Shown: positions 2,084-19,502 of the stretch, in pieces
Layout: every line of letters starts with the position of its first letter
How positions within the stretch are numbered: position 1 is the first letter of the stretch
Virus record (IMG/VR): IMGVR_UViG_3300005737_000047
Coordinates: 1 to 21,090 of that record
Length of the DNA: 21,090 bases
Direction: 5' to 3' (one strand)
From: a virus
Program-made: the position numbers and the translations under genes
Notes under the pieces: model-generated
Seen by the model: the letters and a program-made list of their open reading frames with translations, nothing else
What the model was told of the DNA's origin: nothing
Databases searched by the model: none

Positions 2084-2143
2084 CTTGAACTGGCCTGATC
2101 CGGTTCTCCCGACGCTTTCGCGACATAACATTCAGAGGACGCC

Positions 2144-3124: not shown

Positions 3125-3128
3125 TCAG

Positions 3129-3464: not shown

Positions 3465-3495
3465 ACCGCCAGAAGCATCCGTGGAAGGAGTGTCC

Positions 3496-3927: not shown

Positions 3928-3938
3928 GGGAGGGACCA

Positions 3939-4972: not shown

Positions 4973-5097
4973 CTGACGCACCGAGACTAGGCGGTCGATA
5001 CATCCGCGATCCCAAGACGGGTGAGCGGGTGAGGGAAGATGAGGCGGCCAAAACGAACAAGCCACCCAAGGCCAAACCCAAAGCGGAGAAGGACTAG
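4969..5097 (+). CDS. 42-residue phage protein at the Mu gp38 position
   Basis: A very short gene with ATG at 4969 overlapping the terminator stop (ATGA) and TAG at 5095-5097, three bases before the tail tube start. The product reads RYIRDPKTGERVREDEA in its centre and ends in a Lys/Pro/Ala-rich tail. Mu-like phages carry a similarly small gene (gp38, DUF2635) here, and the 'RDP.TG' phrase is compatible with that family, but the rest is too short to decide. Tight coupling on both sides argues that it is translated. Function unknown. Confidence 0.6.
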   Translation: MTDAPRLGGRYIRDPKTGERVREDEAAKTNKPPKAKPKAEKD

Positions 5098-5100
5098 CTT

Positions 5101-6021: not shown

Positions 6022-6030
6022 GAGGCATTG

Positions 6031-6393
6031 ATGCAATTCCGCCTGTCAGACACATACGCCTTCTGGTGGCCTGTGACGGTCAAAATGCCGGATCCTGAGA
6101 AGCCTGGGAAGGTCCTGGATCAGAGTTTCGAAGCTCAGTTTTTATTGGTCGGCAGTGAGCGTCTGGTTGCTATGGATGGCGAGAACGGTGACCAGCATGC
6201 GGTCCTGAAGGAGGTCTGGACCGGCTGGCGCGGCGTCGAGGACGACGACGGATCCGAAGCCGCGTTCTCGGATGAGACCCGCGATCGCTGTCTCGATTAT
6301 GCCCATGTGCGGCTGGCGCTTTATACCGCCTATCTGGAAGCCAGCAGTGGCCGCGCTGCTCAAAACGGTCAGGCACCAAAGGTAAAAAACTGA
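6031..6393 (+). CDS. Tail assembly chaperone, upstream frame (lambda G-like)
   Basis: A 120-residue protein between tail tube and tape measure, where siphoviruses encode the tail assembly chaperone. It opens MQFRLSDTYAFWWPVTVKMP and contains AQFLLVGSERL, WTGWRGVEDDDGSEAAFSDE and LYTAYLEASSGRAAQNG. ATG 6031 is preferred over TTG 6028 because AGGAGG lies at 6020-6025, five bases before it. The last codons run into a slippery A AAA AAC heptamer directly before the TGA, so a fraction of ribosomes probably shift to the next frame. The product would bind the tape measure and recruit tube subunits. The sequence alone is weakly diagnostic; the role comes from position and the frameshift signal. Confidence 0.75.
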   Translation: MQFRLSDTYAFWWPVTVKMPDPEKPGKVLDQSFEAQFLLVGSERLVAMDGENGDQHAVLKEVWTGWRGVEDDDGSEAAFSDETRDRCLDYAHVRLALYTAYLEASSGRAAQNGQAPKVKN

Positions 6394-6432
6394 TGGCGGC
6401 CGCGCGGGCCTGGGCCTTCGCCCGGCGCGGCC
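6384..6432 (+). other. Predicted programmed -1 frameshift site with stimulatory stem-loop
   Basis: The heptamer A AAA AAC (6384-6390) is in the correct phase for X XXY YYZ slippage relative to the upstream chaperone frame (GTA AAA AAC TGA). After a -1 shift the next codon is CTG (6390-6392), then ATG GCG, exactly the frame of the following gene. After a 7-nt spacer (6391-6397), GGCCGCGCGGGC at 6398-6409 can pair with GCCCGGCGCGGCC at 6420-6432. This gives about 12 GC-rich pairs with one bulged G and a 10-nt loop. Spacer and stem are as expected of a frameshift stimulator. Frameshifting between two tail chaperone frames is conserved in dsDNA phages. Confidence 0.75.
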
Positions 6433-6764
6433 TCATGGATCCAGAAGTCACCCTGGAGCTAGACCGGGAGACAGCCTCGGACTTTGAGGCTCTGGGCGTC
6501 TCCATTCCGGATGCCCAGGTTTCAGAAGCGGAATGTTTTGATGTCTGGCGCTGCAACTGGCGCAGCGTGACCGCTTTTCTGTCCCTGGAGACCCAGTGGC
6601 GGGTGGCAGCCGGCCCGGCGGGGTTTGCGTTTCTGGGGCTCGATTACACCGCTGCCAAGGCCGCTTTGTGCGGCCGCAGCCGGCGCGCCTGGCAGCGCCT
6701 GCTTGCTGATCTCCAGATCATGGAGCGTGCGGCCCTGCCGATCCTGAATGAGGAGCGCCCATGA
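6393..6764 (+). CDS. DUF1799-like tail assembly protein, downstream frame (lambda T-like)
   Basis: A 123-residue frame lying -1 relative to the upstream chaperone, which it overlaps at TGATG. It contains CFDVWRCNWRSVTAFLSLET followed by QWRV, GPAGF and a GLDYTAAKA segment, the 'W..N..s...F..l.TQWR....G..GLDY' pattern of DUF1799. This family regularly sits between the chaperone and tape measure of B3-like prophages. It may be made on its own from ATG 6393 by coupling, or as the C-terminal part of a roughly 244-residue frameshift fusion. In lambda only the fusion form (GT) is made, and it bridges the tape measure and tube subunits. It overlaps the tape measure gene by four bases. Confidence 0.75.
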   Translation: MAAARAWAFARRGLMDPEVTLELDRETASDFEALGVSIPDAQVSEAECFDVWRCNWRSVTAFLSLETQWRVAAGPAGFAFLGLDYTAAKAALCGRSRRAWQRLLADLQIMERAALPILNEERP

Positions 6765-8986
6765 CGCTTCAGTTGAAGATGCTGGCCAGCCTCGATGCCA
6801 GTGGCGTCGAACGCGGGGCGCAGGAGGCACAGAGCCATCTGCGGCTTGTCGGCAGCGAAGCAACGAAGACGGGTGCACGGCTTTCTCAGGCACTTGATGC
6901 GCAGTTCGGTATCGGCGGCGCACCTGCCGCGGACCGGGCCCGCGACATCGAGGCCTACGGCGCACAGTTGGATGATCTGCGAGCCAGGTTCAATCCGCTG
7001 TTCGCCCTGCAACGCCGTTATGAGGCAGGCGTCAAGGAGATCGCCGATGCTCATAAGGTTGGCGCGATCAGTGCCAAGGAGGCTGCGAACGCGACAGCAC
7101 AGGCCACCGGCATCTACAAGGCCCAACGGGCAGCGCTCGCAGGATCATCTCAGGTTCTGAGCAAGTTCGGATCTTCCACAAAGCTGGCTGCCCATGAGCT
7201 CAACATCCTTGGCCAGCAGTTTGCCGATGCAGGTGTCCAGATCGCCTCCGGACAATCACTGTTTACTGCCATCCTGCAACAGGGCAGCCAGGTCCAGTTT
7301 CTGCTCGGATCCAAAGGGGTCAATACGATCGGCGGATCGCTCGGCATTCTCAAACAAGGCCTGATCGGTTTTCTGAACCCGATCAATCTTGCGCTGGTCG
7401 GACTGGCTGGTGGGGCAGCTGCCGCCTCCGCGCTTTATCAGGCAGTCGCCAACGACGACACGGCCGAGGACGCTCTGGAGAACCAGAACGAACTGATCCG
7501 GCAGATGGCGGAACGCTACAAAGACGTGAAGGTAGCCCTTGATCAGCTGGATCGTTCGCCGACTCTGACCAACATTGCCCTTGATACGGATGATCTGGAG
7601 CAGCAGCGCGATCTCCTCCAATCCCTGATCATCGAGATCGAGGAGAGTGTTCAAAAGAGCCTGCGCCTTGAAGCCAACGCGCTGACGGCCCTGGCCGAGC
7701 CACTGACACAGGACGCAGCCCTGTTTCGCGCGTTCCAGGATGAGCTCCGGGCAACGGCCGATCAGTTCATCAACGCAGAGGCAGGTGCCGATCAGCTCAT
7801 CGCCCGGCTGATCGAACTCGCCCGGACCGCACCGGACACGGAAAGCGAACAAGCAATCCGGGAGATCATCAAGGAGGCGAGGCAAGCCGACACCGGCTTG
7901 TTCGATCTGGTCAAGCGGCTGAACGAGGTGGAAGCCTCCCTGCGCGGTGTGGATGCTGCCGCAAGTGCCCTCGGATCGATCTCGACAGCGGCCAATAGTC
8001 GGGTCGGATCGGCCTTCGGGATCTTTGAGGAAGAGGCAGCAAGAAAACGGCTGGCGGCTCAACTCAGACCACAGGCAACAAAGAAATCGGAATCCGATCG
8101 CCGGGTCGAGCGAACGCAGGACCTGTTGCGCAGTCAGGATGAGCAACTGGCTCGGCTGCGGCTGGAGACCCGTTTGGTTGGCAGCACGGATGCCGCGCGT
8201 GCCAAGGCCCTCGCAACACTCGAAGCAGAGATCCAGATCCGCGATCTTGGCATCAACGCGCTTGGCACCGAAGCCGAAGCCATTCGGGCCAATGCCCTGG
8301 CGATTGCTGACAGCACCGGCACGCTTGAGCAGAACCAACAGGCCTGGGACACGGTTCGCTCAGCCGGGACAAGTGCGATCGACACGCTGGTGGATCGGCT
8401 GGCGAGCGGTGATCTCTCCGGGGCCATCCAGGCAGTCACCTCTGATCTCTCCCAGATGGTCCTGATGCTGGGTGCAGCCAATCCTTTGAAGAACGCGCTC
8501 TTCGGCAGCAACCTTCCGACCCTGTCGTCCGCCGGTGGACTGCTGTCTGGCCTCTTGGGTGGTGCGGGCGTTTCCAGCGCGATTTCCGCGGCGACCTTGG
8601 GTCTCTACGACATTGGCGGGGCAACGCCTGCCGGTAATGACAATGACATCGCCGGGTTTGTCCATAAGAACGAATATGTCTTCGATGCCAAGTCGACACG
8701 GGCCATCGGCGTGCCAGTGCTGGAGGCTATGCGCAAGGGTTCTCTTAGGGGCTATCAGTCCGGAGGCCTGGTGACCACGGACCCTATGAGCCTGCCCGGG
8801 TTTGTCGGTCAGGCGGGGCTCGGGAACGCTCAAAATGCCCGGCCAAATGCCGTGGCCGCCGGGGAAGATCGCGGCAATGTCACCATCAACATCACGACGC
8901 CGGATGCCCAGAGCTTCCGAGCCGCCCGCACCCAGATCGCCGGTGAGTTCGCCCGTCTGACCGCACGTGGGCAGCGGGGGATGTAA
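6761..8986 (+). CDS. Tail tape measure protein
   Basis: A 741-residue, Ala/Gln-rich, largely helical protein that sets tail length. Residues 1-190 are predicted coiled coil. A hydrophobic glycine-rich stretch lies at about 194-226 (GFLNPINLALVGLAGGAAAA), as in tape measures that insert into the host membrane. Long helical segments follow to about residue 540. Near residues 630-670 the typical C-terminal signature appears: GFVHKNEYVFDAKSTRAIG followed by LEAMRKGSLRGYQSGGLV. At roughly 1.5 angstroms per residue, a value known for tape measures, the tail would be near 110 nm, which is an inference. It overlaps its neighbours (ATGA and TAATG). It is far longer than the GTA tape measure, pointing to a true siphovirus-sized tail. 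Confidence 0.88.
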   Translation: MTLQLKMLASLDASGVERGAQEAQSHLRLVGSEATKTGARLSQALDAQFGIGGAPAADRARDIEAYGAQLDDLRARFNPLFALQRRYEAGVKEIADAHKVGAISAKEAANATAQATGIYKAQRAALAGSSQVLSKFGSSTKLAAHELNILGQQFADAGVQIASGQSLFTAILQQGSQVQFLLGSKGVNTIGGSLGILKQGLIGFLNPINLALVGLAGGAAAASALYQAVANDDTAEDALENQNELIRQMAERYKDVKVALDQLDRSPTLTNIALDTDDLEQQRDLLQSLIIEIEESVQKSLRLEANALTALAEPLTQDAALFRAFQDELRATADQFINAEAGADQLIARLIELARTAPDTESEQAIREIIKEARQADTGLFDLVKRLNEVEASLRGVDAAASALGSISTAANSRVGSAFGIFEEEAARKRLAAQLRPQATKKSESDRRVERTQDLLRSQDEQLARLRLETRLVGSTDAARAKALATLEAEIQIRDLGINALGTEAEAIRANALAIADSTGTLEQNQQAWDTVRSAGTSAIDTLVDRLASGDLSGAIQAVTSDLSQMVLMLGAANPLKNALFGSNLPTLSSAGGLLSGLLGGAGVSSAISAATLGLYDIGGATPAGNDNDIAGFVHKNEYVFDAKSTRAIGVPVLEAMRKGSLRGYQSGGLVTTDPMSLPGFVGQAGLGNAQNARPNAVAAGEDRGNVTINITTPDAQSFRAARTQIAGEFARLTARGQRGM

Positions 8987-9612
8987 TGGCTGATTTTGAT
9001 GAGGTGCAATTCCCGGTCATCGTGGCGCGCGGGGCAAGCGGTGGGCCCGAGCGGCGCACGGAGATTGTCGAACTGGCCTCCGGCCATGAGGAGCGCAACA
9101 CGCCCTGGGCAGACAGCCGGCGCAGCTATGATGTTGGCTCCGGCATTCGGAGCGCCGATGATCTGGCGGATGTGGTTACCTTCTTTGAGGCCCGGTCCAG
9201 CCGCCTGCGGGGCTTCCGCTTCAAGGACTGGTCGGACTTCAAGTCCTGCAAACCGTCTGAGGCGATCTCCTATGAGGATCAGTTCCTGGGGGCAGCTGAC
9301 GGCGTGACCACAAGTTTCCAGCTGGTGAAGGCCTATAGCTCGGGCGGTCGCACCTGGACACGGGAGATCTCCAAACCGGTGGCTGGAACCACCGTGATCG
9401 CTGTTGGCGGGGCGGCTCAACCCTCCGGTTGGTTGGTCGATACCACCAGCGGGCTGATCACCTTCGACGTCGCCCCGGCTTCCGGCAATGTCACTGCCGG
9501 TTTTGAGTTCGACGTGCCATGCCGCTTCGACACGGATCAGCTGCAGACCACTTTGCGCATTCATCGCCTCGGCGAGATCCGCGCCATTCCAATTGTGGAG
9601 GTGCGCGTATGA
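8986..9612 (+). CDS. DUF2460 distal tail protein (GTA ORFg12-like)
   Basis: A 208-residue protein of the DUF2460 family, known in the Rhodobacter GTA as the distal tail subunit joining tube and tip. It starts MADFDEVQFPVIVARGASGG, and the characteristic block is RNTPWADSRRSYDVGSGIRS, then VVTFFEARSSRLRGFRFKDW. Later it has TTSFQLVKAYSSGGRTWTRE and the terminal TTLRIHRLGEIRAIPIVEV, which relatives share almost word for word. The start codon overlaps the tape measure stop (TAATG) and its end overlaps the next gene (ATGA). The four tail-tip genes that follow are in the same order as in GTA clusters. Confidence 0.93.
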   Translation: MADFDEVQFPVIVARGASGGPERRTEIVELASGHEERNTPWADSRRSYDVGSGIRSADDLADVVTFFEARSSRLRGFRFKDWSDFKSCKPSEAISYEDQFLGAADGVTTSFQLVKAYSSGGRTWTREISKPVAGTTVIAVGGAAQPSGWLVDTTSGLITFDVAPASGNVTAGFEFDVPCRFDTDQLQTTLRIHRLGEIRAIPIVEVRV

Positions 9613-10505
9613 AGACGGTTCCCACCGCCATGCAGGCCGCTCTCGATGGCCGGGCAACCACCCACGCCAGATGCTGGAAGGTGGAACGGCGCGACGGCAC
9701 CCTGTTCGGCTTTACCGATCACGACCGAGCCCTGACCATCGCCGGTCTTTCCTATGAGGCCGCGACCGGCTTCACCGCCACATCCATCGAATCCAGCCTT
9801 GGGCTGGCGGTCGACAATCTGGACGTCGAAGGAGCGCTGTCCTCGGCCTCGATCACGGAAGACGACATCGCCCGCGGGTTTTGGGACGATGCGGTGATCG
9901 AGGTCTGGCTCGTTGACTGGACCGACACGGACAATCGGCTGCTCCTGCGCAAAGGCAACATTGGCGAGATCTCCCGAGGCCCGACTGCCTTCATGGCCGA
10001 ACTGCGCGGGTTGGCGCACCGGCTTGGCCAGACCACGGGCCGTCAGTTCGACCGGACCTGCTCCTGGGACCTGGGCGACGGCAAATGCAAGGTCGCTTTG
10101 GCCGGCTGGATCTCGACTGGCGTGGTTGTGACGGTCTTTGATTTCCGCAGCTTCACCGCCTCCGGCCTGGGGGGCAAAGACGACGGGTTGTTTCAGCGCG
10201 GACTTGTGACCTGGACCAGCGGTGCAAATAGCGGCCTTCAAATGGAGGTTAAACGGCATTCAAAGCCAAATCCCGACATAGATGGAACGGTGACCCTTGA
10301 ACTGGTGCTGCCCATGGCCGATGCCATCGAGGCCGGAGATGACTTCAGCATCCAGGCCGGTTGCGACAAGACCTGGGCAACCTGTCAGTCCCGGTTCGGC
10401 AACGGCGACAACTTCGGCGGCTTTCCCCATATGCCCGGCAACGAGATCGTCATTGGCTATGCAGACAAGGACGATCTGAACGATGGCGGGAGCCTGTTCA
10501 CATGA
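9609..10505 (+). CDS. DUF2163 tail hub protein with likely Fe-S site (GTA ORFg13-like)
   Basis: A 298-residue protein of the DUF2163 family with the BR0599-like C-terminal domain, the hub of the GTA tail tip. The N-terminal domain has RCWKVERRDGTLFGFTDHDR and the 'VDNLDVEGAL' segment. The C-terminal domain has four Cys: C151 and C160 (CSWDLGDGKC) and C252 and C259 (CDKTWATC), followed by FGNGDNFGGFPHMPGNE, a strong family signature. A C-x8-C ... C-x6-C arrangement recalls the [4Fe-4S] ligands of lambda tail-tip protein L; metal binding here is inferred. ATG 9609 overlaps the previous stop by four bases and fits the usual MKTVP opening. Confidence 0.92.
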   Translation: MKTVPTAMQAALDGRATTHARCWKVERRDGTLFGFTDHDRALTIAGLSYEAATGFTATSIESSLGLAVDNLDVEGALSSASITEDDIARGFWDDAVIEVWLVDWTDTDNRLLLRKGNIGEISRGPTAFMAELRGLAHRLGQTTGRQFDRTCSWDLGDGKCKVALAGWISTGVVVTVFDFRSFTASGLGGKDDGLFQRGLVTWTSGANSGLQMEVKRHSKPNPDIDGTVTLELVLPMADAIEAGDDFSIQAGCDKTWATCQSRFGNGDNFGGFPHMPGNEIVIGYADKDDLNDGGSLFT

Positions 10506-10954
10506 GCAATCCGCTCGGCAGCCAGATTGTTGCCGCCGCCCGAAGCTGGATCGGCACGCCCTATGTCCATCAGGCAGCAACGAAGGACGCCGGCTGCGAT
10601 TGTTTGGGTCTCGTGCGCGGTGTCTGGCGGGAGGTCTTGGGAACCGAGCCGGAGACGCCTCCACCCTATACGCGGGACTGGGCCGAACGGTCAGGACGGG
10701 AGACCTTGAAGGAAGCAGCGTGCCGGCACATGGAGGCGGTGCCGGTCGACCAGGCAGGTCCTGGTGACGTCTTGCTGTTCGCCTTCAAGGCGGGCCTACC
10801 CGCCAAACACTGCGCGGTCCTGACCACTCCGATCGATGGTCCTGCTCCTCGGATCATCCATGCACATGAGCACCTGCCAGTGGCTGAAGTCGCACTGGTG
10901 CCGGGATGGCGGCGGAAGATCCGCTTTGCCTTCCGCTTTCCGGGAGCGTGCTGA
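10502..10954 (+). CDS. NlpC/P60 tail-tip cell-wall peptidase (GTA ORFg14-like)
   Basis: A 150-residue protein of the NlpC/P60 cysteine peptidase family, which cuts peptidoglycan peptides to help DNA entry. The opening VAAARSWIGTPYVHQA is typical. The nucleophile is Cys34 in the D-C-x-G box (GCDCLGLVRGVW), and the first catalytic His is His103 in PAKHCAVL; a second polar position is likely in IIHAHE near residue 120. The helper motif PGDVLLF lies between. All catalytic elements are present, so it should be active. It sits between hub and host-specificity genes as in GTAs, coupled by ATGA and TGATG overlaps. No signal peptide is seen, in keeping with a virion component. Confidence 0.93.
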   Translation: MSNPLGSQIVAAARSWIGTPYVHQAATKDAGCDCLGLVRGVWREVLGTEPETPPPYTRDWAERSGRETLKEAACRHMEAVPVDQAGPGDVLLFAFKAGLPAKHCAVLTTPIDGPAPRIIHAHEHLPVAEVALVPGWRRKIRFAFRFPGAC

Positions 10955-13900
10955 TGGCGACACTTGTCCTCGGCGCAGCTGCGACAGCCTTCTCCGGCGC
11001 CATCGGCGCGGGCTCATTTACCTCGGCTTTGATCTCAGGCGCGGCGACCGTTGCCGGAGCCTATGCGGATAATCTTCTGGCCTCGGCCCTGTCACCGACG
11101 CAGCGCCAGTCCGTGGAAGGCCCAAAGATTTCTGATCTGCGTCTGCAGACATCGACCGAAGGGGCTGCTCTGCCGGACGTCTTTGGCCGGGTGCGGATTG
11201 CCGGTCAGGTGATCTGGGCGACACGGCTCAGGATGGAAGTCTCCACCTCAACAGAGACAGTTGGTGGCAAGGGGCTGGGCGGCGGCCAGAAGGTCAGCAC
11301 GACGACTTATCAGTATTTTGCCAGTTTCGCGGTCGGTCTCTCCGAAGGACCGATCATCGGCATTGGCCGGGTCTGGGCCGATGGCAAGCTGCTCGACCTG
11401 ACCGGGATCACCTACCGCGTCCATGTCGGGTCTGAAGATCAGCAGCCTGATCCCTTGATCGAGACAAAGGAAGGCAGCGCGCCCGCCTATCGCGGCACGG
11501 CCTATGTGGTCTTCGAGGACCTGTCGCTGGAGGGCTTCGGCAACCGCATTCCCCAGCTGGAGTTCGAGGTCTTCAGACGTGTCGGCCAATCCGTCGAAGA
11601 CGAGATCCAGGGCATGGTGGTGATCCCCGGCGCCGGCGAGTGGGTCTATGCAACAGAACCCGTGCGCAAGAACGATGCAGAGACCGAAGGCGCGACCACA
11701 CCTGAGAACGTCAACAACCAGATCGGCGGCACGGACTGGTCGGTGGCGATCGACGATCTGGAACGGACCTGTCCGAACGCCAAATCGGTTCTGCTTGTGG
11801 TCGCCTGGTTCGGTACAGACCTGAGGTGTGGCTCTTGCCAGATCCGGCCCGGGGTCGAGTTCGGCGACGAGAAGACCAACGAGCCCCTGAGCTGGTCCGT
11901 CCACGGCGAGACAAGAGACACAGCCTATGTGGTCTCGCGAGACGCAGGCGATGATGACCGGCCAGCCTATGGCGGCACACCCTCGGACCAGTCGGTGGTT
12001 CAGGCCATTCGGGATCTTAGGGCACGCGGCATCGATGTGGTGCTTTATCCCTTCATCCTGATGGATATTCCAGATGGCAACGGCTTGCCGGATCCTTATG
12101 GCGAAGCCGAGCAGGCAGTTCTGCCCTGGCGAGGGCGCATCACCTGCCATCCGGCAACCGGACAGCCAGGCACCGTCGACAAGACAGCTGCAGCTGGAAC
12201 GCAGGTCGATGCGCTGTTCGGGTCTGTCACTGCGAACCAGATCAGCGTCTCGATCAATTCCGATAGTGGCGCCGTCAGCACCTCCTACAGCGGACCGTCC
12301 GAATGGTCGCTCAGGCGCATGGTGCTGCACTACGCAAAGCTCTGCGCGGCACTGAACGCGGAAGAGGCAGGCACCGTCAGCGGCTTTGTCATGGCCTCGG
12401 AACTGCGCGGTCTGACGACGATCCGCAGTTCGGCCTCAGGTTTTCCGGCAGTCGCCCAACTCGTGGCGCTGGCTGGAGATTGCCGATCGGTATTGGGCAG
12501 TTCCGTGTCGCTGACCTATGCCGCCGACTGGTCAGAATATCGCGGCTTCGATGCTGGCGATGGCTCGGGCGATTTCTTCTTCCATCTGGATCCGCTCTGG
12601 GCCAGCTCTGACATCGATGCGGTGGCGATCGACAATTACATGAAGCTCTCCGACTGGAGGGACGGCACCACGCATCTGGATGCACTGGACGGCTGGTCCT
12701 CGATCCATGATCCGGAGTATCTCAAGAGCAATGTCGAAGGCGGCGAGGATTACGACTGGTACTATGCCAGCGAGGCCGATCGGACCAATCAGATCAGGAC
12801 GCCGATCACCGATGGATCTGGCAAGCCGTGGGTCTACCGGGCGAAGGACTTCCGGAACTGGTGGCTGAACCAGCACCATGATCGGCCGGGCGGTGTCGAA
12901 AGCGGATCACCAACATCCTGGGTGCCACAATCCAAGCCGATCTGGTTCACCGAATACGGCTTCCCATCCGTCGACAAGGCCACCAACCAGCCGAACGTCT
13001 TTGTCGATCCAAAGTCCTCGGAAAGCGCCTGGCCGTATTTCTCGAACCGGCAGCGCTCGGACGCAATCCAGCGGCGGGGCATCGAGACCGTGCTGCGCTA
13101 CTGGGATTCGGAGGAAGGCAACAATCCGGTTTCCGGCATCTATGGCGACCGCATGCTGGATCTCTCCCACTCCTTCCTCTGGACCTGGGACGCGCGGCCT
13201 TATCCGGCCTGGCCGTATCAATCGGAGATCTGGGGCGACGGCGACAACTGGCCGCTTGGGCATTGGGTCCAGGGCAAGTTCGGCGCGGTCGACCTGGCCG
13301 AGCTGGTGGCTTACATCTGCGCATCCGTTGGCTTTACAGACATCGATGTTTCGCAGCTTCAGGGCGTCGTCACCGGCTGGCAGCGGGCGTCGATCACGAC
13401 ACCGCGGGCCCAGCTGCAGACACTGGCACAGCTTTACAGGTTCGACGCTGTCGAGAGCGAAGGCCTGATCCGCTTTGTCCCGCGGGGCGGAGCGACAAAG
13501 GCCACCATCGACGAACAGGATCTGGCAGCGCCCGATCGCAAGCAGGCCGACTGGTCGATGACACGAGCCCAGGAGACGGACCTGCCGATCCGGGCATCAC
13601 TGTCTTACTTCGATGCGGAGAGCGACTATCGCCAGACCAGCTCCAATGCCGGACGGCTGACGGGGTCTTCGGAACGGATCGAAAGCGTGTCCGCACCTGC
13701 CGTGATCGAGACGGCGGAAGCTGAAGGCATGGTCGAGGCGTGGCTGCTGGAACGTTGGGGCGGGCGGGAACAAGCGAGCTTTGCTTTGCCTCCCTCGATG
13801 ATCCGGCTGGATCCGACCGACACGGTGGCGCTTGAGGCAGGCGGCAGGTCAAGGGATCTGCGCCTTTCACGCATCATCGATGCAGGGGCCCGGCAATGTG

Positions 13901-14904
13901 AGGCGGTCGCCGTCGAACGGTCGATCTATTCGATCCAGCGCGGCACATCGCGGCCCGTGTCGCCCGATACCGTGCCGAGCTATGGACCGGCGGTGTTGGA
14001 GGTTCTGGATCTGCCGGTGATCGAGGAAACGCAGGTTGAGCATCGGCCCTGGCTTGCCGCTACGGCCAGTCCCTGGGCGGGTGTTCGCGTACTTGAGGGA
14101 AGCCGCGCAGTCGGCAGTGTGATTGCACCGGCAACGCTCGGGGTGACGACAACGGATCTGGCGAGTGGCACACCGTATCGCTTTGACCGAGCAAACGCCC
14201 TGACGGTGAAGCTCGCCTATGGCACGCTGGCGTCTGTCTCCGAGGATGAGCTTCTTGAAGGCACAAACAACGCCCTGGCGATCCAGAACGCGGACGGTGA
14301 CTGGGAGATCCTGCAATTCGCCACCGCCGACCTGGTCGCGGCGCAAACCTGGCAGCTGTCCGGACTCCTGCGCGGTCGGCGCGGGACGGAACATGCCATG
14401 CGGGATCCGGTTGTTGCTGGCGCACGCGTCGTGTTGCTCGATGGCGCCCTGACCCAGGCCGATGTGCCTTTGTCAGATCGGGGCATTGAGCGCGCCTGGA
14501 GCTATGGGCCGGCACCTGCAGCCTCGACGGACAGCAGCTTTAGAGACCGTTCAAACACCTTTGAAGCGGTGGCTCTAAAGCCGTTTGCGCCGGCGCATCT
14601 GGCAGGAAGCAGGAATCCAACGGGGGATCTGGCCATCTCCTGGGTTCGGAGGGCGCGCAAGAATGGAAGTTGGCAGGATGGCGCCGATGTTCCGCTCATA
14701 GAGGTTCAGGAGGCCTATGAGCTCGAGGTACTCTCGGGCGCCACCGTTGTCCGGACAGCCGTCAATCTAACTGCTCCGTCTTGGACCTATGTGGTCGCCG
14801 ACCAGATCGCCGACTTCGGGTCAGTCCAGTCCGCTCTCACCATCCGCGTCTATCAGATCTCCGACACCGTTGGCCGTGGAACTCCCAAGGAGGAAACCCT
14901 ATGA
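10954..14904 (+). CDS. GTA TIM-barrel host-specificity tail protein (ORFg15-like)
   Basis: A 1316-residue tail-tip protein, about the length of the GTA megatron protein (roughly 1300). It starts with a Gly/Ala-rich hydrophobic stretch (LVLGAAATAFSGAIGAGSF), as relatives do, then the VFGRVRIAGQVIWA and YFASFAVGLSEGPI segments. The TIM-barrel glycosidase-like domain spans roughly residues 410-740. Visible landmarks are VAIDNYMKLSDWRDG with Asp560 and the IWFTEYGFPSVDKATNQPN motif with Glu667, the usual acidic pair. A Phage-tail_3-like region follows near 790-960. ATG 10954 was chosen for the TGATG overlap and the GGGAG ribosome binding site at 10942-10946. In GTAs it forms the central spike and binds the cell surface; sugar cleavage is suspected but unproven. 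Confidence 0.92.
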   Translation: MATLVLGAAATAFSGAIGAGSFTSALISGAATVAGAYADNLLASALSPTQRQSVEGPKISDLRLQTSTEGAALPDVFGRVRIAGQVIWATRLRMEVSTSTETVGGKGLGGGQKVSTTTYQYFASFAVGLSEGPIIGIGRVWADGKLLDLTGITYRVHVGSEDQQPDPLIETKEGSAPAYRGTAYVVFEDLSLEGFGNRIPQLEFEVFRRVGQSVEDEIQGMVVIPGAGEWVYATEPVRKNDAETEGATTPENVNNQIGGTDWSVAIDDLERTCPNAKSVLLVVAWFGTDLRCGSCQIRPGVEFGDEKTNEPLSWSVHGETRDTAYVVSRDAGDDDRPAYGGTPSDQSVVQAIRDLRARGIDVVLYPFILMDIPDGNGLPDPYGEAEQAVLPWRGRITCHPATGQPGTVDKTAAAGTQVDALFGSVTANQISVSINSDSGAVSTSYSGPSEWSLRRMVLHYAKLCAALNAEEAGTVSGFVMASELRGLTTIRSSASGFPAVAQLVALAGDCRSVLGSSVSLTYAADWSEYRGFDAGDGSGDFFFHLDPLWASSDIDAVAIDNYMKLSDWRDGTTHLDALDGWSSIHDPEYLKSNVEGGEDYDWYYASEADRTNQIRTPITDGSGKPWVYRAKDFRNWWLNQHHDRPGGVESGSPTSWVPQSKPIWFTEYGFPSVDKATNQPNVFVDPKSSESAWPYFSNRQRSDAIQRRGIETVLRYWDSEEGNNPVSGIYGDRMLDLSHSFLWTWDARPYPAWPYQSEIWGDGDNWPLGHWVQGKFGAVDLAELVAYICASVGFTDIDVSQLQGVVTGWQRASITTPRAQLQTLAQLYRFDAVESEGLIRFVPRGGATKATIDEQDLAAPDRKQADWSMTRAQETDLPIRASLSYFDAESDYRQTSSNAGRLTGSSERIESVSAPAVIETAEAEGMVEAWLLERWGGREQASFALPPSMIRLDPTDTVALEAGGRSRDLRLSRIIDAGARQCEAVAVERSIYSIQRGTSRPVSPDTVPSYGPAVLEVLDLPVIEETQVEHRPWLAATASPWAGVRVLEGSRAVGSVIAPATLGVTTTDLASGTPYRFDRANALTVKLAYGTLASVSEDELLEGTNNALAIQNADGDWEILQFATADLVAAQTWQLSGLLRGRRGTEHAMRDPVVAGARVVLLDGALTQADVPLSDRGIERAWSYGPAPAASTDSSFRDRSNTFEAVALKPFAPAHLAGSRNPTGDLAISWVRRARKNGSWQDGADVPLIEVQEAYELEVLSGATVVRTAVNLTAPSWTYVVADQIADFGSVQSALTIRVYQISDTVGRGTPKEETL

Positions 14905-15629
14905 CGTCGACCGCACGCCTGCAGCTGCCGCTGATTGCCGCGAGCCAGTCCCAGAAGGAAGTCACCCACAACGAGGCGCTGACAAGGCTCGACATCCTGG
15001 CGCATCTGACGATCCTAGACCGGGACCTGAGCGTGCCGCCAGGCGCGCCGGGTGAGGGGGATGCCTATCTGGTTGCGAGCGGCGCAATGGGAGAGTGGGT
15101 CGGGCAGGACAGCAAGATCGCGACCTATGTGGACGATGCCTGGGCCTTCTATGTGCCCTACATCGGACTTCTGGCCTTCGTCGCCGATGAAGGCACACTC
15201 GCTGTATGTACCTCTATTGGTTGGCGGGATTACGGCGCGCTGCTTTCAGAGGTCGCTGTCGTGTCGCAAACCGCCTCTGGGGCGCAAAGCCGGATCTGCA
15301 CGGTGGAGGAAGAACTCAACGGATTGAGCGGAGCCAGTGTCGACACATCCATCGTCATTCCAAACCGCGCGGTTGTCTGGTGCGTGTCGACCAGGACATC
15401 GACTGCCATCACCGGGGCAGCGTCCTATGACTGCGGGATTGTCGGGGAGACATCCAAGTTCGGTGGCTCGCTAGGGATCGCTGAAGGCTCGACCAATGCC
15501 GGAGTGATCGGGCCGCAGGCGTTTTATTCGGACACGGCGCTGCGCTTGAGCGCGAATGGCGGGAGCTTTACTGCAGGCGCGGTGAAGGTGGTGTTGCATT
15601 ACATGCTGCCGGTCGTGCCGGGAGCGTGA
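14901..15629 (+). CDS. DUF2793 tail fibre-like protein
   Basis: A 242-residue protein whose first 100 residues are a clear DUF2793 domain: ARLQLPLIAASQSQKEVTHN, EALTRLDILAHLTI, PPGAPGEGDAYLVAS and DSKIATYVDDAWAFYVP. The C-terminal part is beta-rich and Gly/Ser/Ala-rich (YDCGIVGETSKFGGSLGIAE and so on), a common make-up for receptor-binding tips. DUF2793 proteins occur at the end of GTA-type tail modules and at least one GTA fibre belongs to this family. An AAGGAGG ribosome binding site (14887-14893) stands seven bases before the ATG, and it overlaps the previous gene by four bases. It is the last gene of the late operon; a convergent gene ends eight bases away and no terminator is evident. 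Confidence 0.85.
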   Translation: MTSTARLQLPLIAASQSQKEVTHNEALTRLDILAHLTILDRDLSVPPGAPGEGDAYLVASGAMGEWVGQDSKIATYVDDAWAFYVPYIGLLAFVADEGTLAVCTSIGWRDYGALLSEVAVVSQTASGAQSRICTVEEELNGLSGASVDTSIVIPNRAVVWCVSTRTSTAITGAASYDCGIVGETSKFGGSLGIAEGSTNAGVIGPQAFYSDTALRLSANGGSFTAGAVKVVLHYMLPVVPGA

Positions 15630-15637
15630 GGCGCAGA

Positions 15638-16189
15638 TTATCTGATGTTTGCTCGTGCTCTTGCGAACGCTGCCTTTGCACTTGCTAAAGAGATTCGTTT
15701 TCGATCGTCGTAGAGGCTGCGGGTATCAATGTAGCACTCCGTCTTGGAACACATTTCATCCATAAATTGGAATGTTCGGCGATTAGTCCCATCGAATGAA
15801 ACGCCAAACAGAATATGCCCCTCACCTGCAGCAATGACTTCGCCATCCTTAAGGACTGACAAAAATGTGGGCAGATCATTCTGCGGTTCTTGTAAAAAAG
15901 TTATTGTGTCCTCCCTAAGAAGCTCGATGCTTCTCGGATCTGTGATGTCAAAGTTGCCATAGCTCAATTGAAAGCTCTCGACGATGGCAGGTCCGGTTCC
16001 GCTGTTCTTTAGATAAACACCATAATAAACTCCCCCATCACGATCAGAGCAAACTTTCCGCATGTCTAGATCGAGCAGAGGCGTAACGGATTGCTTATTG
16101 TGCTGCCTCATGAAATACGTGTTCATGATCGAAACGCCCAATGCGCATAGTGCTACTACAGCTGCAGCACCGCCAATGAGTAGGTCCAA
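15638..16189 (-). CDS. Single-pass membrane protein of unknown function
   Basis: A 183-residue protein on the minus strand with TTG start at 16189. That start was chosen because GGAGG (plus-strand 16195-16199) stands five bases before it and the protein then begins with a transmembrane helix (DLLIGGAAAVVALCALGVSI). A longer form from 16357 would overlap the divergent gene and bury the helix. After the helix comes a basic RQHNKQSVTPLLDLD, a phrase seen in many small bacterial membrane proteins of unknown role. The soluble beta-rich domain (YYGVYLKNSGTGPAIVESFQ) is probably cytoplasmic. It ends facing the tail operon and is divergent from the defence operon. Base composition is lower in GC than the phage genes. 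Function unknown. Confidence 0.7.
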   Translation of the reverse strand: MDLLIGGAAAVVALCALGVSIMNTYFMRQHNKQSVTPLLDLDMRKVCSDRDGGVYYGVYLKNSGTGPAIVESFQLSYGNFDITDPRSIELLREDTITFLQEPQNDLPTFLSVLKDGEVIAAGEGHILFGVSFDGTNRRTFQFMDEMCSKTECYIDTRSLYDDRKRISLASAKAAFARARANIR

Positions 16190-16337
16190 GTGCTCCTCCA
16201 ATTCCAAATCTTGGTATGTAAACTGACCGGTTAAAGAGATTATTGCTTGAGCGGGTTCATTGTCGCATAAATACCCTAATACGCGTTCGAATCTCTGAGT
16301 GCAATTTTTAGTGGTATTAACTTGGCAAAGACCGAAT
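16190..16337. promoter_or_regulatory. Divergent promoter region
   Basis: This 148-base AT-rich gap separates the minus-strand membrane gene from the defence operon. Weak sigma70-like pairs are visible. For the minus strand, TTGCAC (16299-16304) and TATTAG (16276-16281) lie 17 bases apart. For the plus strand, TTGCTT (16243-16248) and CATAAA (16266-16271) also lie 17 bases apart. Both are poor matches and could be chance. No clear operator palindrome is seen. Confidence 0.25.
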
Positions 16338-17246
16338 ATGCAAAAGTCGGATTTCAACGATTACTTCGATAGAGCGCTCGACACCTGCAATCAAACCAGG
16401 TTTGAAGATTGGTTTTCGGAGCTTGCCGGCTGCGTATGGGGAACCGATTTTGAACCAATCAAAGCAGGTGGAAAGCACGGAGACAAAAAGAGTGACGGTC
16501 GGCGTATATCGACGGAGACCGTGTACCAATGCTACGCTCCGGAGTCCTCGTCGACATTTGCCAAGAAGGCTCAGAGCAAAGTGAACGACTCCTTTCCGGA
16601 GGTGTTAGACTATTGGCCTAACCTAAAAGAATGGGTCTTTGTTCACAATAACAAAGGAGGAATTACATCTGCCCTTAGCGACGCGCTGGAAGCCCTGCGA
16701 AGCCAGTATCCGAAGATCACCATTTCGACGGCATCTCGCCGGTTCCTGAAGGACGCGCTCCACGACAAACTCACTATGCAACAGATGTTGGATGTGTATC
16801 CAAGTGCGCGGCTCGATTTTAAACACGTTAGCATGGAGCATGTTCGGCCGCTTCTTAAGAGGATAATTCAACAAAAGACAACGACGTACGATCCATCTGA
16901 TTTTGGTGAAATTCCGAATGAGAAGAAGCTCGATTACAATTCGCTTAGCCCAGATGCTAAGCACGACCTTAAGCGTGCTTTCCCGAACATAGGGATCGTA
17001 GACCGGTACCTTGCGGGTATGAACAACCCAGCGAATGCCTCAATCATTCAGTCGGAGATGCGGTCCAAGTATCTGGAACTAAGGGATTTAGGCTACGATC
17101 CGGACGAGATTCTTGGAAAATTGCTTTCTTTTGTTCGAGGACCAGTTGAGGAACCGCAAGCCAATGCCGCAGCTTATGTGGTTTTGTCCTACTATTTCGA
17201 TTCCTGTGACATCTTTGAGAATGTGCCGGAAGAAGCCAAATGCTGA
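16338..17246 (+). CDS. ABC-3C system component, putative effector
   Basis: A 302-residue protein, first gene of an ABC-three-component cassette. The N-terminal domain (about 1-110) contains F22-E23-D24-W25, FEPIKAGGKHGDKKSDG with Asp49 and Asp53, and VYQCYAP with Gln64. This resembles the helix / acidic turn / Q-x-[YK] layout of restriction-endonuclease-like folds, but that is an inference. The central part (WVFVHNNKGGITSAL) is alpha/beta. The C-terminal half (from about 185) is helical and fits a domain that couples ABC-3C effectors to the middle component. ATG 16338 is preferred although its ribosome binding site is weak. It overlaps the next gene by seven bases (or one, if that gene starts at 17246). 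GC is lower than in the phage genes. Confidence 0.7.
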   Translation: MQKSDFNDYFDRALDTCNQTRFEDWFSELAGCVWGTDFEPIKAGGKHGDKKSDGRRISTETVYQCYAPESSSTFAKKAQSKVNDSFPEVLDYWPNLKEWVFVHNNKGGITSALSDALEALRSQYPKITISTASRRFLKDALHDKLTMQQMLDVYPSARLDFKHVSMEHVRPLLKRIIQQKTTTYDPSDFGEIPNEKKLDYNSLSPDAKHDLKRAFPNIGIVDRYLAGMNNPANASIIQSEMRSKYLELRDLGYDPDEILGKLLSFVRGPVEEPQANAAAYVVLSYYFDSCDIFENVPEEAKC

Positions 17247-17482
17247 TGCCAACGAAGCACATTAAAACCGAAAATGCACTCATTGGCGTGGGCGGCGAGG
17301 TCTTGGACCTTTTGGATCGCGAAAAGACAGTATCAACGCTATTCCGCGATCTACAACAGTGGCGGAGAGAGCATGAACTCTCAACAATCCATTTTGACTG
17401 GTTCCTCCTGTCGCTGGACTTTTTGTTTGCTGTCGGTGCAGTGCGTTTCGAATCAGGCTTATTGAAAAAGATGAACCAATGA
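17240..17482 (+). CDS. ABC-3C system middle component 6 (MC6)
   Basis: An 80-residue protein matching middle component 6 of ABC-three-component systems. It opens with PTKHI and continues ENALIGVGGEVLDLLDRE, then HFDWFLLSLDFLFAVGAVRF and a final GLLKKM, the phrases shared by this small family. Predicted structure is a winged-helix-like adaptor. In ABC-3C systems the middle component links the ATPase to the effector. ATG 17240 has a GGAAG seven bases upstream; ATG 17246, forming TGATG with the previous stop, is an equally reasonable start and would give 78 residues. Its stop overlaps the ATPase start (ATGA). Order effector, middle component, ATPase is as described for such systems. Confidence 0.85.
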   Translation: MLMPTKHIKTENALIGVGGEVLDLLDREKTVSTLFRDLQQWRREHELSTIHFDWFLLSLDFLFAVGAVRFESGLLKKMNQ

Positions 17483-19188
17483 TTGTTGAACTCTCAAGCA
17501 ATCTTGCGTCTTTCAAGACACTTCGTTTTGGACCCGGTCTGAATATTCTTCTAGCTGAACGCCATGAGACTTCCGGAACACGCGACACGAGAAACGGCAC
17601 AGGAAAAACAAGTTTCATCGAACTTGTTCACTATGTCTTGTCGGAGAAGCGCAATCCTAGTGATGATTTTCACAAGCCGGAGCTGATTGGTTCGGAGTTT
17701 GTCTGCACATTTTCGGAAGCGAGTACAGAGTATGCGGTCTCACGTAAAAGTGGGCCAACCGATGAGGCCAGAAAAAATGGTGAACCCATAGCACCCGTCG
17801 ATTTGCGTGCGGAACTAGCGTTGAGGTGGTTTGGCCTCAGCAGAGAAGATACGAGCCAAAATTACACTCCAAAGTTTGGTGCATTGCTGTCGTACTTTGT
17901 ACGCAAAGAGCGTAATGGCGGGTTTGCGAACCCAATATTAAATGCGTCGACACAATCGAGCTGGGACAGCCAAGTTTGCTTGTCGTATCTGTTGGGCTTT
18001 GATTGGCGATTGCCTCAGCAACTTCAGATCAAAAAAGACCAGAAAAAGGATGCGGATACGCTCTATACCATGATCAAGAGCGGTTTTCTGTCGGATGGCG
18101 ATCTTGATCTAAACAAGATGCAGGCACGATTAGATTTTCTCGATCGTGAAATCGGAAGGAAACGTGAGGAGATCGCATCAGCTACAGTAGTTGATGGATA
18201 CCGCCAGCATGAAGTGACCGCTAACGATCTCACGTCACGTATCCGAGGTCTTAACGAGGCCAACCTTGAAGACTTGGACCTAGTCGAAAGCATCGAAGAT
18301 GCACTTGCTGAGGTCGAAGACGCCAGTATCGCAGATGTCAGAGGACTTTACGAGCAAGTTGGCGTTTTCTTCACGGAGCAGGTGAAAAAGCGTTTTGAGC
18401 AGGTTTCAGAATTTCACAAGCAGATCGCGCAAAATCGCGAATCTCATCTTCGCCGGGAAAAAAAGAACGCTGAGGAACGTCTAGGTGCACGCAAGACAGA
18501 GATACTTGAATTACAGAAAGCACTTGCCGACAAGCTAAATCTTCTTAAGTCTGGTATAGCGATTGAGAGGCTTACTTTTCTTCAATCAGATCTGAACCGT
18601 TTGGAAGCCGAGCAAGGAGACCTTCGGCACCAAATACCCCGTTTCCGTAATTTGGCTGAAGACCGAAAGAAACTAAAGCGGGAGATCGATGATCTTGTAG
18701 ATGCAATCGGGGAGGATGTGCTGGAGCGCGCCAAGCCGCGTAAATCGGCTTTGGACGTGTTCGCAAGCACCTCTCAATTTTTATACGATGAACCAGGCTC
18801 GCTGATCATAGGTCGTTCGAAGGGGGTCAGGGGCCTATCGATTGAGACGGACATCGTGGGCAAGAAAAGCGGTGGGAAGACCCACATGCAGGTTTTTTGC
18901 TTTGATTGGTTATTGGTTGAAGCCTCGCTCAATCAAGACAAGTTTCCCGGTTTCCTAATCCACGACAGTCATATTTTTGACGGTGTAGACGGCCGTCAAG
19001 TAGGCTTGGCGTTGGCGCTGGCGCAAAAGAAGTGCGAGGAACTTGGTGTTCAGTATATTGTCGCCATGAACTCGGATGACCTTCAGAAAATTGAGCGCGA
19101 AGAAAACGGCTTCGATCCCTACGACTACGTTCTTGACACAGTATTGACTGATGAGCCGACTGGTGGGCTTTTTGGTTTCAGATTCTGA
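17479..19188 (+). CDS. DUF2326 SMC-like ATPase of the ABC-3C system
   Basis: A 569-residue ABC/SMC-type ATPase. The N-terminal lobe has a P-loop at residues 37-45 (TRNGTGKTS), with Thr where Gly is usual, as I recall from DUF2326 proteins. The centre (about 200-400) is charged and coiled-coil-like. The C-terminal DUF2326 lobe includes GKKSGGKTHMQVFCFDWLL near 460 (signature-like) and GFLIHDSHIFDGVDGRQ near 490, in place of a standard Walker B and D-loop, then QYIVAMNSDDLQKI. It is the motor or sensor part of ABC-three-component systems, which were predicted from gene neighbourhoods to act against invading DNA or phages. It is last in the operon. What triggers it cannot be read from the sequence. 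Confidence 0.88.
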   Translation: MIVELSSNLASFKTLRFGPGLNILLAERHETSGTRDTRNGTGKTSFIELVHYVLSEKRNPSDDFHKPELIGSEFVCTFSEASTEYAVSRKSGPTDEARKNGEPIAPVDLRAELALRWFGLSREDTSQNYTPKFGALLSYFVRKERNGGFANPILNASTQSSWDSQVCLSYLLGFDWRLPQQLQIKKDQKKDADTLYTMIKSGFLSDGDLDLNKMQARLDFLDREIGRKREEIASATVVDGYRQHEVTANDLTSRIRGLNEANLEDLDLVESIEDALAEVEDASIADVRGLYEQVGVFFTEQVKKRFEQVSEFHKQIAQNRESHLRREKKNAEERLGARKTEILELQKALADKLNLLKSGIAIERLTFLQSDLNRLEAEQGDLRHQIPRFRNLAEDRKKLKREIDDLVDAIGEDVLERAKPRKSALDVFASTSQFLYDEPGSLIIGRSKGVRGLSIETDIVGKKSGGKTHMQVFCFDWLLVEASLNQDKFPGFLIHDSHIFDGVDGRQVGLALALAQKKCEELGVQYIVAMNSDDLQKIEREENGFDPYDYVLDTVLTDEPTGGLFGFRF

Positions 19189-19428
19189 TTATGTCGGGGT
19201 CGACGACCAGGTTCGATGATGTTCGCTAGATAGGAAGGGGCGAACTGAGTCGAGCATCGCCGTAAATGATCACTAAATCAGATGCCAAGTGAAGTTGCGC
19301 GTTTTGCCAAACGAAGTTGCGCGCTACACTTCCGGGGTCCAGTTTTGGGTGCCAGTTGGACGAATAGCCGAAATCAGCCGACCCGGAACAGGATCGAACA
19401 ACGTAAAATCAATGACTTACAGAAAAAT
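19189..19428. other. Non-coding junction between defence cassette and tRNA gene
   Basis: No gene or clear terminator is seen between the ATPase stop and the tRNA 3' end. Short open frames here do not resemble known proteins. The stretch contains the tandem repeats at 19284-19327 and, right after them, a short imperfect repetition of CCAGTT (19332-19357). A T-run just beyond the tRNA CCA, read on the minus strand, may stop tRNA transcription. It is a candidate right boundary of the inserted element. Confidence 0.4.
19284..19327 (+). repeat. Two abutting 22-bp direct repeats, possible mobile-element end
   Basis: GCCAAGTGAAGTTGCGCG (19284-19301) and GCCAAACGAAGTTGCGCG (19306-19323) match at 16 of 18 positions, and the units are exactly 22 bases apart. 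They lie in direct orientation after the last cargo gene. Two abutting 22-bp transposase sites in this order occur at the right end of Mu. The second copy is followed by TACA, so a terminal CA at 19327-19328 is possible. An IS21-like element end would also have repeated subterminal motifs. The repeat is seen; its role is inferred. Confidence 0.5.
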
Positions 19429-19502
19429 TGGCTGGGGAACCTGGATTCGAACCAGGACTAACAGAGTCAGAGTCTGCGGGTCTACCGTTAACCTATTCCC
19501 CA
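19429..19502 (-). tRNA. tRNA-Gln (anticodon CUG)
   Basis: Read on the minus strand from 19502. Acceptor stem TGGGGAA pairs with TTCCCCA. The D arm is GGTT/GACC with loop AACGGTA. The anticodon arm is GCAGA/TCTGT with loop CTCTGAC, giving anticodon CTG (reads CAG, glutamine). The T arm is CCTGG/CCAGG with loop TTCGAAT. Discriminator G and an encoded CCA end at 19429. The total is 74 bases and all four stems are intact apart from G-U pairs. The gene lies between the accessory region and the chromosomal gene. Its 3' end faces the accessory DNA, the usual side for integrase-mediated insertion. Confidence 0.93.

What the first reader, a model, noticed from the sequence alone, without database searches (positions are those of the whole stretch)
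15638..19188. ABC-three-component defence cassette placed after the last tail gene
Effector candidate, MC6 and DUF2326 ATPase form a compact operon of lower GC than the phage genes. It lies directly between the end of the phage late operon and a tandem repeat/tRNA boundary. ABC-3C systems were predicted computationally as conflict systems and few are tested. A prophage-borne copy suggests it protects the lysogen from other phages. The neighbouring divergent membrane protein may be a fourth part.
Basis: partly seen in the sequence, partly recalled or inferred. Interest (0 to 1): 0.75.

Follow-up and report, generated by a model that had tools for sequence, protein, structure and literature searches.

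The report
Nuclease defence cassette in Mu-like prophage
A virus dormant in a bacterial chromosome carries, at its very end, three genes of a known type of suspected cell-suicide defence that probably uses a DNA-cutting enzyme, so it may shield its host from rival viruses or plasmids; the type is known, the home is unusual.

Summary
16338-17246 carries CTD10, 17240-17482 is MC6 and 17479-19188 carries DUF2326, all far above Pfam's cut-offs: an ABC-three-component (ABC-3C) operon, also PADLOC candidate PDC-M68. Predicted folds give the effector a restriction-endonuclease-like N-domain and a C-domain resembling Lamassu LmuA, and the ATPase a Rad50/SMC-like head resembling LmuB.

The 'tandem repeat' before the tRNA is the phage's right end: two sites 22 bp apart, ending ...GCGCGCTACA at 19328. 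Nine other viral contigs (two of them near-duplicates) have this end; four encode a Mu-type transposase, against 0 of 16 one-site matches. So the cassette lies inside a Mu-like phage, 140 bp from its end. A sister phage (89% identical) has other, partly defence-like genes there. The divergent membrane gene is not a fourth part: no homologue near 91 related cassettes.

Related cassettes are found on plasmids and chromosomes and rarely in phages; prophage-borne three-component/Lamassu genes are in print (PMC11630473). Most likely a Lamassu-like abortive nuclease system; function untested. New member of a known kind.

The parts
16338..17246 (+). ABC-3C effector: N-terminal restriction-endonuclease-like domain (about 1-157) plus C-terminal domain CTD10 (LmuA-like)
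   Evidence: Pfam CTD10 98.7 bits; PDC-M68A 52.6 bits; AlphaFold model pLDDT 85.8, N-domain Z 10.4 to EcoT38I, 10.2 to FokI, 9.7 to Avs4; C-domain Z 6.5/6.3 to LmuA
17240..17482 (+). Middle component MC6 (80 aa)
   Evidence: Pfam MC6 86.6 bits; upstream of DUF2326 in relatives
17479..19188 (+). DUF2326 Rad50/SMC-like ABC ATPase (569 aa), presumed sensor
   Evidence: Pfam DUF2326 119.2 bits; PDC-M68B 407.8 bits, full length; model pLDDT 87.1 matches YydD, Lamassu LmuB, Rad50/SMC
15638..16186 (-). Small gene with a hydrophobic, membrane-like N-terminus, divergent from the cassette; same accessory segment but not part of the system
   Evidence: Low GC; no Pfam; weak phrog_35671 of unknown function, E 3.4e-4; no homologue near 91 related cassettes
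19291..19328 (+). Right end of the Mu-like phage: two 22-bp-spaced sites and terminal ...CTACA; host DNA starts at 19329
   Evidence: shared with 9 viral contigs (L142 and L150 near-duplicates); agreement among 9 distinct ends drops after this base
543..15629 (+). Late (head and tail) genes of the Mu-like phage: Mu I protease, capsid, tape measure, GTA-like tail, DUF2793
   Evidence: Pfam for the I protease, tail, DUF2460, hub and DUF2793 proteins (other names recalled from position); 89% DNA identity to sister phage L010 over window 948-15620
19429..19502 (-). Host tRNA-Gln(CTG), outside the phage
   Evidence: ARAGORN and Rfam

Best explanation
The cassette is an MC6-type ABC-3C operon carried as cargo in the right arm of a Mu-like transposable prophage. 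Inferred mechanism, by analogy with Lamassu/DdmABC: a dimer of the Rad50-like ATPase, with MC6, holds the nuclease inactive through its C-terminal domain, senses an abnormal DNA state of an incoming phage or plasmid, and releases or assembles the nuclease, which cuts DNA and kills or stalls the cell before the invader spreads. The lysogen population, and so the prophage, benefits. Shown here: family membership, operon structure, intact frames, predicted folds, position inside the phage. Inferred: trigger, complex, DNA cutting, protection.
For: All three parts and their order; strict triad (MC6 hit abutting the DUF2326 start and effector hit just upstream) in 84 of 91 loci. The effector N-domain resembles restriction endonucleases and its C-domain LmuA's; the ATPase model matches LmuB, Z 25.4 and 24.0. 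The best structural match of the ATPase, 9a6c_A, belongs to an entry titled an integrative crosslinking model of YydD-YydB, and its other chain (9a6c_B) also matches the effector model (Z 13.0 but rmsd 13.9), which suggests that the two subunits touch. Cassette inside the phage: right end at 19328. The sister phage has other genes in the same place and no trace of this cassette. Lamassu superfamily said to include ABC-3C and to be thought to act by abortive infection (PMC10586767, PMC12409362, passages read).
Against: No function was measured. No solved structure relates by sequence to the ATPase (0 hits at E<=0.01); the few hits of the effector profile (E<=1) and MC6 profile (E<=10) were to proteins I judge unrelated, best E 0.018 and 0.0054. 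Foldseek gave no effector hit at E<=0.001, and non-nucleases also appear among the weaker aligned rows. Sequence similarity to PADLOC LmuB is weak (26.4 bits). The C-domain match to LmuA is in the ambiguous range (Z about 6.5). MC6 is not the DUF6521 middle component described for DdmABC. The transposase and left end of this phage are not in the window.
Confidence: 0.62

Rival explanations
1. The cassette targets plasmids (or conjugative elements) rather than phages, or mainly stabilises the prophage, and any phage protection is incidental.
For: The related DdmABC restricts both plasmids and phages (PMC12409362, passages). The cassette's relatives are themselves found on plasmids (50 of 72,556 records), as would suit competition between plasmids.
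Against: Nothing here separates the two targets.
Confidence: 0.2
2. The cassette is host DNA and the Mu-like phage merely inserted beside it.
For: Low GC; relatives are mostly on chromosomes and plasmids; the three other viral relatives are in other contexts; none of the other Mu-like pieces examined holds the cassette.
Against: The single right-end motif in the window lies beyond the cassette and faces left, and agreement among nine distinct ends drops after 19328. The accessory segment begins right after the last tail gene (15629/15638), where the sister phage also carries extra genes.
Confidence: 0.04
3. The cassette is a decaying passenger with no present function.
For: Some relatives look decayed (L023, L072).
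Against: All three frames are intact with overlapping starts and stops; the motif GDxKxDG and the invariant ATPase residues are kept.
Confidence: 0.12

Closest known systems
ABC-three-component (ABC-3C) systems, MC6 / CTD10 / DUF2326 type (PADLOC PDC-M68)
   Same: All three gene families, order, overlaps; full-length PDC-M68B match
   Different: Carried at the right end of a Mu-like phage instead of on a plasmid or chromosome; closest ATPase relative found is 76% identical (Mesobaculum littorinae, L020)
Lamassu type II / DdmABC (LmuA-LmuC-LmuB)
   Same: Three-gene logic; SMC-like ATPase fold; effector with nuclease-like N-domain and a C-domain resembling LmuA's
   Different: Middle component is MC6, not DUF6521; ATPase of 569 aa with weak sequence similarity to LmuB; nuclease domain nearest EcoT38I/FokI/Avs4 in this comparison
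Mu-like phages with accessory genes (P. aeruginosa RGPs; Mu com-mom region, the latter recalled)
   Same: Core transposable phage with variable accessory spots; sister phage has a Com protein and a DNA methylase at the right end, and four other contigs have a related methylase by the end
   Different: GTA-like tail; cargo here is a complete nuclease defence-type operon, larger than the mostly 34-100-codon ORFs described in PMC4378225
Variable defence loci of Vibrio filamentous and tailless prophages (PMC11630473)
   Same: Prophage-borne LmuB and three-component genes in variable loci, often near prophage borders
   Different: Different phage type; no sequence comparison was made here

Membership tests
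ABC-3C (MC6 type) | Effector with a CTD-type C-terminal domain (CTD10) | tested here: met
   98.7 bits against cut-off 28.1
ABC-3C (MC6 type) | Middle component MC6 | tested here: met
   86.6 bits against cut-off 27.2
ABC-3C (MC6 type) | ABC ATPase with DUF2326 | tested here: met
   119.2 bits against cut-off 28.7; Rad50/SMC-like fold
ABC-3C (MC6 type) | Gene order effector-MC-ATPase kept across genomes | tested here: met
   8 of 8 annotated plasmid loci fetched (of 50 plasmid records), one with an HNH effector; 84 of 91 loci under a strict automatic rule
ABC-3C (MC6 type) | Conflict or defence function | not testable with these tools
   Needs a plating or plasmid-stability test
Lamassu (LmuABC) | LmuB-like SMC/Rad50 ATPase | tested here: inconclusive
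   Fold matches LmuB (9hqx_f Z 25.4, 473 aligned, rmsd 23.4) but also Rad50 and SMC heads at Z 20-24; sequence model only 26.4 bits
Lamassu (LmuABC) | LmuA-like effector with docking C-terminal domain | tested here: inconclusive
   C-domain 191-299 to 9ny5_A 257-383, Z 6.5, rmsd 4.0, 105 aligned; 9uxi_A Z 6.3
Lamassu type II (DdmABC) | Middle component with DUF6521 (as PMC12409362 describes DdmB) | tested here: not met
   Pfam reported MC6 and nothing else up to E 0.1 for 17240-17482
Mu-like transposable phage | Mu-type transposase | tested here: inconclusive
   Left part of the phage is not in the window; sister phage encodes one (rve, HTH_Tnp_Mu_1, Mu-transpos_C)
Mu-like transposable phage | Mu head-gene set | tested here: met
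   Mu-like I protease 237 bits; capsid E only at 21.0 bits, below its cut-off 22.9
Mu-like transposable phage | End with repeated sites and terminal CA, joined to unrelated DNA in different hosts | tested here: met
   Window and 9 contigs; transposase in 4 of 9 two-site contigs against 0 of 16 one-site ones
Mu-like transposable phage | Short target-site duplication | not testable with these tools
   The window lacks the left end; the left stretch of G415 showed neither end nor duplication

The most novel reading that the evidence does not exclude
Transposable phages are privileged carriers of Lamassu-like DNA-state sensors: because they replicate by transposition inside the chromosome they may not show the extrachromosomal or free-end DNA that these systems are thought to sense, so the phage can keep such a system armed against rivals through its own cycle. 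The right arm of this Mu-like family, where several members carry a DNA methylase, would be a standing slot for defence and counter-defence genes.
Probability: 0.15. Interest if true: 0.7.

Novelty: new member of a known kind. Interest (0 to 1): 0.42.

Why it matters
As I recall, ABC-3C systems were predicted by computation. I found no study of the MC6/CTD10/DUF2326 branch in the library searched: 'ABC-3C' and 'ABC-three component' gave the same two papers, 'DUF2326' two others, 'PDC-M68' none. I saw listings of all four and passages of the first two; most subscription papers are not held. A copy closely delimited by a phage end gives a natural comparison: related phages with and without the cargo. 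It also raises a testable question of self-tolerance: how a phage that cuts into the chromosome to replicate avoids triggering its own DNA sensor.

Tried and rejected
tRNA attachment-site reading: rejected, because the phage end at 19328 is 100 bp short of the tRNA-Gln and shared with transposable phages. Membrane gene as fourth subunit: rejected (0 of 91). Apparent effector swap in L023: rejected; its ATPase was matched only to residue 494 and the gene before MC6 shows no effector domain, so I read the locus as decayed. Host identification by the Ppx fragment: failed, best 63% identity; 50 of 289 genomes had a match at E<=1e-50. GTA-like tail as a phage marker in whole genomes: useless, since 25 of 30 genomes searched (30 of the 80 cassette loci were given) match, probably through gene transfer agents. 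Right-end pattern in 385 alphaproteobacterial genomes: 0 matches. Target-site duplication: not found, the left end being missing from the stretch read. Single-sequence viral scan with the ATPase: nothing; the alignment found three loci. The ATPase of L102 found nothing in phage records; that of L083 matched MT840023 weakly (23.7%, 56% of the query), not followed. A PHROG of unknown function, phrog_5467, matches the ATPase (127.4 bits), so phage-derived relatives are already in that library; its members were not examined. Single-site matches to the end pattern (16 of 25) were treated as chance. Promoter-like sites were fewer than in shuffles (1 against a mean of 3.7) and terminator-like sites about as many (6 against 4.3). 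In one search two helper queries (the tail gene at 9607 and Ppx at 19813) were out of frame; their results are not used. One search also left the sister phage out of its printout; the sister was checked.
Full report
Observation. Three adjacent genes at 16338-19188 carry CTD10, MC6 and DUF2326. The PADLOC models PDC-M68A (52.6 bits) and PDC-M68B (407.8 bits, residues 1-569 of 569) match the first and last. GC is 47-49% against 60-63% for the eight phage genes measured, with a matching fall in third-position GC. The genes overlap by a few bases. The divergent gene on the other strand probably starts at 16186, behind GGAGGA.

The record. The window is a complete IMG/VR record of 21,090 bases, so the host genome and the left part of the phage were not available.

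Which phage. The head genes include a Mu-like I protease and the tail a GTA-like protein. One viral contig, L010 (record of 45,096 bases), matches window 948-15620 at 89% identity; by a separate search the match begins at 531. Its other half encodes a transposase with Mu domains and GemA, so the family is a transposable phage. In the sister the place after the last tail gene (DUF2793) holds a Com-like zinc ribbon, a D12 DNA methylase, a pentapeptide-repeat protein with a TIR domain and a 101-residue protein of no family. The three cassette proteins and the membrane protein have no match (E<=0.01) in the sister's whole record, nor in the pieces held of the nine contigs that share the phage end described next. 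The sister's record stops at the stop codon of the last gene, so its right end cannot be seen.

Where the phage ends. GAAGTTGCGCG occurs at 19291 and again at 19313, 22 bp apart, followed by CTACA ending at 19328. The double site had 0 matches in 100 shuffles of the window at up to 3 mismatches. A scan for the looser double site gave 10 viral contigs. A scan for GAARTTGCGCGCTACA gave 25. Of these 25, nine have a second site 22 bp upstream (L115, L117, L120, L123, L131, L132, L135, L142, L150) and 16 do not; up to 3 mismatches were allowed, and L142 and L150 are near-duplicates. A relative of the sister's transposase is encoded in 4 of the 9 (70%, 73%, 45%, 43% identity) and 0 of the 16, eight of which are 29 kb or longer. 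The five two-site contigs without it are all under 14 kb. It is also absent from the 7 contigs that lack the full end. Over nine distinct ends (window and eight contigs, L150 left out) the second site is kept at 6 to 9 of 9 per base, and agreement drops at the first base after CTACA. The last 16 bases were fixed by the search pattern itself, so only the second site and the drop count as evidence. Beyond the end lie a recA leader (L115, L117), a capsid gene of another phage-like cluster (L123) or a tRNA-Ser about 200 bp away (L142, L150); the flanks of L131, L132 and L135 were not identified, and L120 seems to run into another phage end. In G415 (the record of L117) the transposase and this end lie at opposite ends of the 37.8-kb record. 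I conclude that the phage in the window ends at 19328, that the cassette ends 140 bp inside it, and that the tRNA-Gln is host DNA. The left end and a target duplication were not seen.

What the right arm holds elsewhere. A D12 methylase related to the sister's (58-60% identity) lies in the right arm of L123, L135, L142 and L150. L115 has two minus-strand genes of no family. L117/G415 has several unassigned genes. L131 and L132 have nothing obvious between the last long gene and the end. So the right arm is variable; that the window holds the cassette where others hold the methylase is notable but rests on few phages. The sister also carries a protein-kinase gene (PADLOC PD-T4-6-like, 113.8 bits), a UvrD-like gene and an unassigned gene between what I take, by recall, for the head-morphogenesis gene and the I protease, and an HNH gene like type IV restriction enzymes near its left end. 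Window 1-530, GC 41% and without a listed ORF of 60 codons before 507, occupies the first of these places.

Distribution of the cassette. tblastn with the ATPase found 50 of 72,556 plasmid records and 0 of 50,697 phage records. In genome contigs 391 stretches matched a pattern, 323 encode a relative, and the best 80 were kept. In viral contigs 35 stretches matched and 3 encode a relative: L100 (70%, beside a UmuC-like gene and near a phage lysozyme), L102 (31%, between an integrase and terminase/portal genes, so clearly in a prophage) and L101 (34%, beside a resolvase and an insertion element by my reading). None of the 83 loci showed genes of the Mu-like phage nearby at E<=1e-5, apart from a 25% transposase-like stretch in L042 and L043. 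The closest ATPases (76, 72, 71, 71%) are in Mesobaculum, a Loktanella bin, Roseovarius and a Paracoccus plasmid, all Rhodobacterales (the Paracoccus record states it; the others by recall). Under a strict rule MC6 abuts the ATPase in 88 of 91 loci, an effector homologue lies just upstream in 85, and both in 84. The 91 are 8 of the 50 plasmid records plus all 83 genome and viral loci kept. The exceptions, with my reading of each: L009 (HNH effector), L023 and L072 (decayed), L086 (contig edge), L078 and L079 (one mirror-image contig) and L098 (partial alignment). No locus has a homologue of the divergent membrane gene (E<0.1).

Folds. The effector model (37-sequence alignment, mean pLDDT 85.8, pTM 0.57) has an N-terminal domain matching restriction endonucleases: EcoT38I Z 10.4, FokI 10.2, Avs4 9.7, with more nucleases below, but also an RNA-polymerase subunit at Z 8.2 and nitrogenase at 6.2. 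Foldseek itself gave no hit at E<=0.001. Residues 191-299 match the C-terminal part of LmuA (Z 6.5, rmsd 4.0, 105 aligned), a value that could be a common arrangement. Conserved polar residues in 37 effectors include D49, D53, Q64 and K81; that they form the nuclease site is inference. The ATPase model (28 sequences, pLDDT 87.1) matches YydD (E 8e-25, Z 33.8; a B. subtilis protein by recall), Lamassu LmuB (E 1.5e-13, Z 24.0-25.4) and Rad50/SMC heads. Where Walker B usually reads DE, this family has D496-S497, invariant in 28 sequences; the reading as a slow or dead ATPase is inference, in line with the remark in PMC10586767 that LmuB is putatively defective in hydrolysis.

Mechanism. The review PMC10586767 (passages read) places ABC-3C in the Lamassu superfamily, with a variable effector, a middle component and an SMC-like sensor, thought to act by abortive infection. 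PMC12409362 (passages read) reports that DdmABC fits the ABC-3C layout, acts on plasmids and phages, and, citing preprints, that LmuA is released and assembles into a tetramer. The same logic is the best guess here. [quoted passage not shown] a transposable phage might share that trait. This is the novel case, and it is speculation; L102, in a prophage with an integrase, shows that the cassette family is not confined to transposable phages.

Prior work. LmuB and three-component genes in variable loci are shown for Vibrio filamentous and tailless prophages (PMC11630473, section 35 with its figure legend read). Accessory regions of Mu-like phages are described for P. aeruginosa (PMC4378225, passages and section 11 read). 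A search for 'Lamassu' with 'Mu-like', 'prophage' and 'defense' returned only PMC11630473. The paper that named ABC-3C systems (Krishnan and colleagues, 2020, recalled) was not read. I therefore rate this as a new member of a known kind in a less usual home.

Noticed in passing
L115 9696-9711; L117 1796-1811: Two Mu-like phages end about 190 bp upstream of the start codon of recA at nearly the same place in two hosts whose RecA agree at 333 of 356 residues. This suggests a target preference in a transposable phage.
   Followed up: partly
L018 1080-4977: The sister phage has a three-gene cargo before the I protease: protein kinase (PD-T4-6-like), UvrD-like helicase and an unassigned 467-residue protein; possibly an undescribed defence cassette.
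   Followed up: partly
window 1-530: 41% GC stretch without listed ORFs of 60 codons before 507, not shared with the sister phage, at the place where the sister carries the kinase cargo.
   Followed up: no
L010 16150-18120: Protein with pentapeptide repeats and a TIR domain at the right end of the sister phage, after Com and a D12 methylase.
   Followed up: no
L120 13989-14067: A phage right end lies about 19 bp from an inverted TGTAACGCGCAAG sequence upstream of a transposase gene, as if two such phages sat next to each other.
   Followed up: no
L102 4639-7645: A divergent ABC-3C cassette (ATPase 31%) inside a prophage between integrase and terminase.
   Followed up: partly
L009 6136-6780: Relative on a Rhizobium lusitanum plasmid with an HNH domain in place of the nuclease domain.
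   Followed up: no
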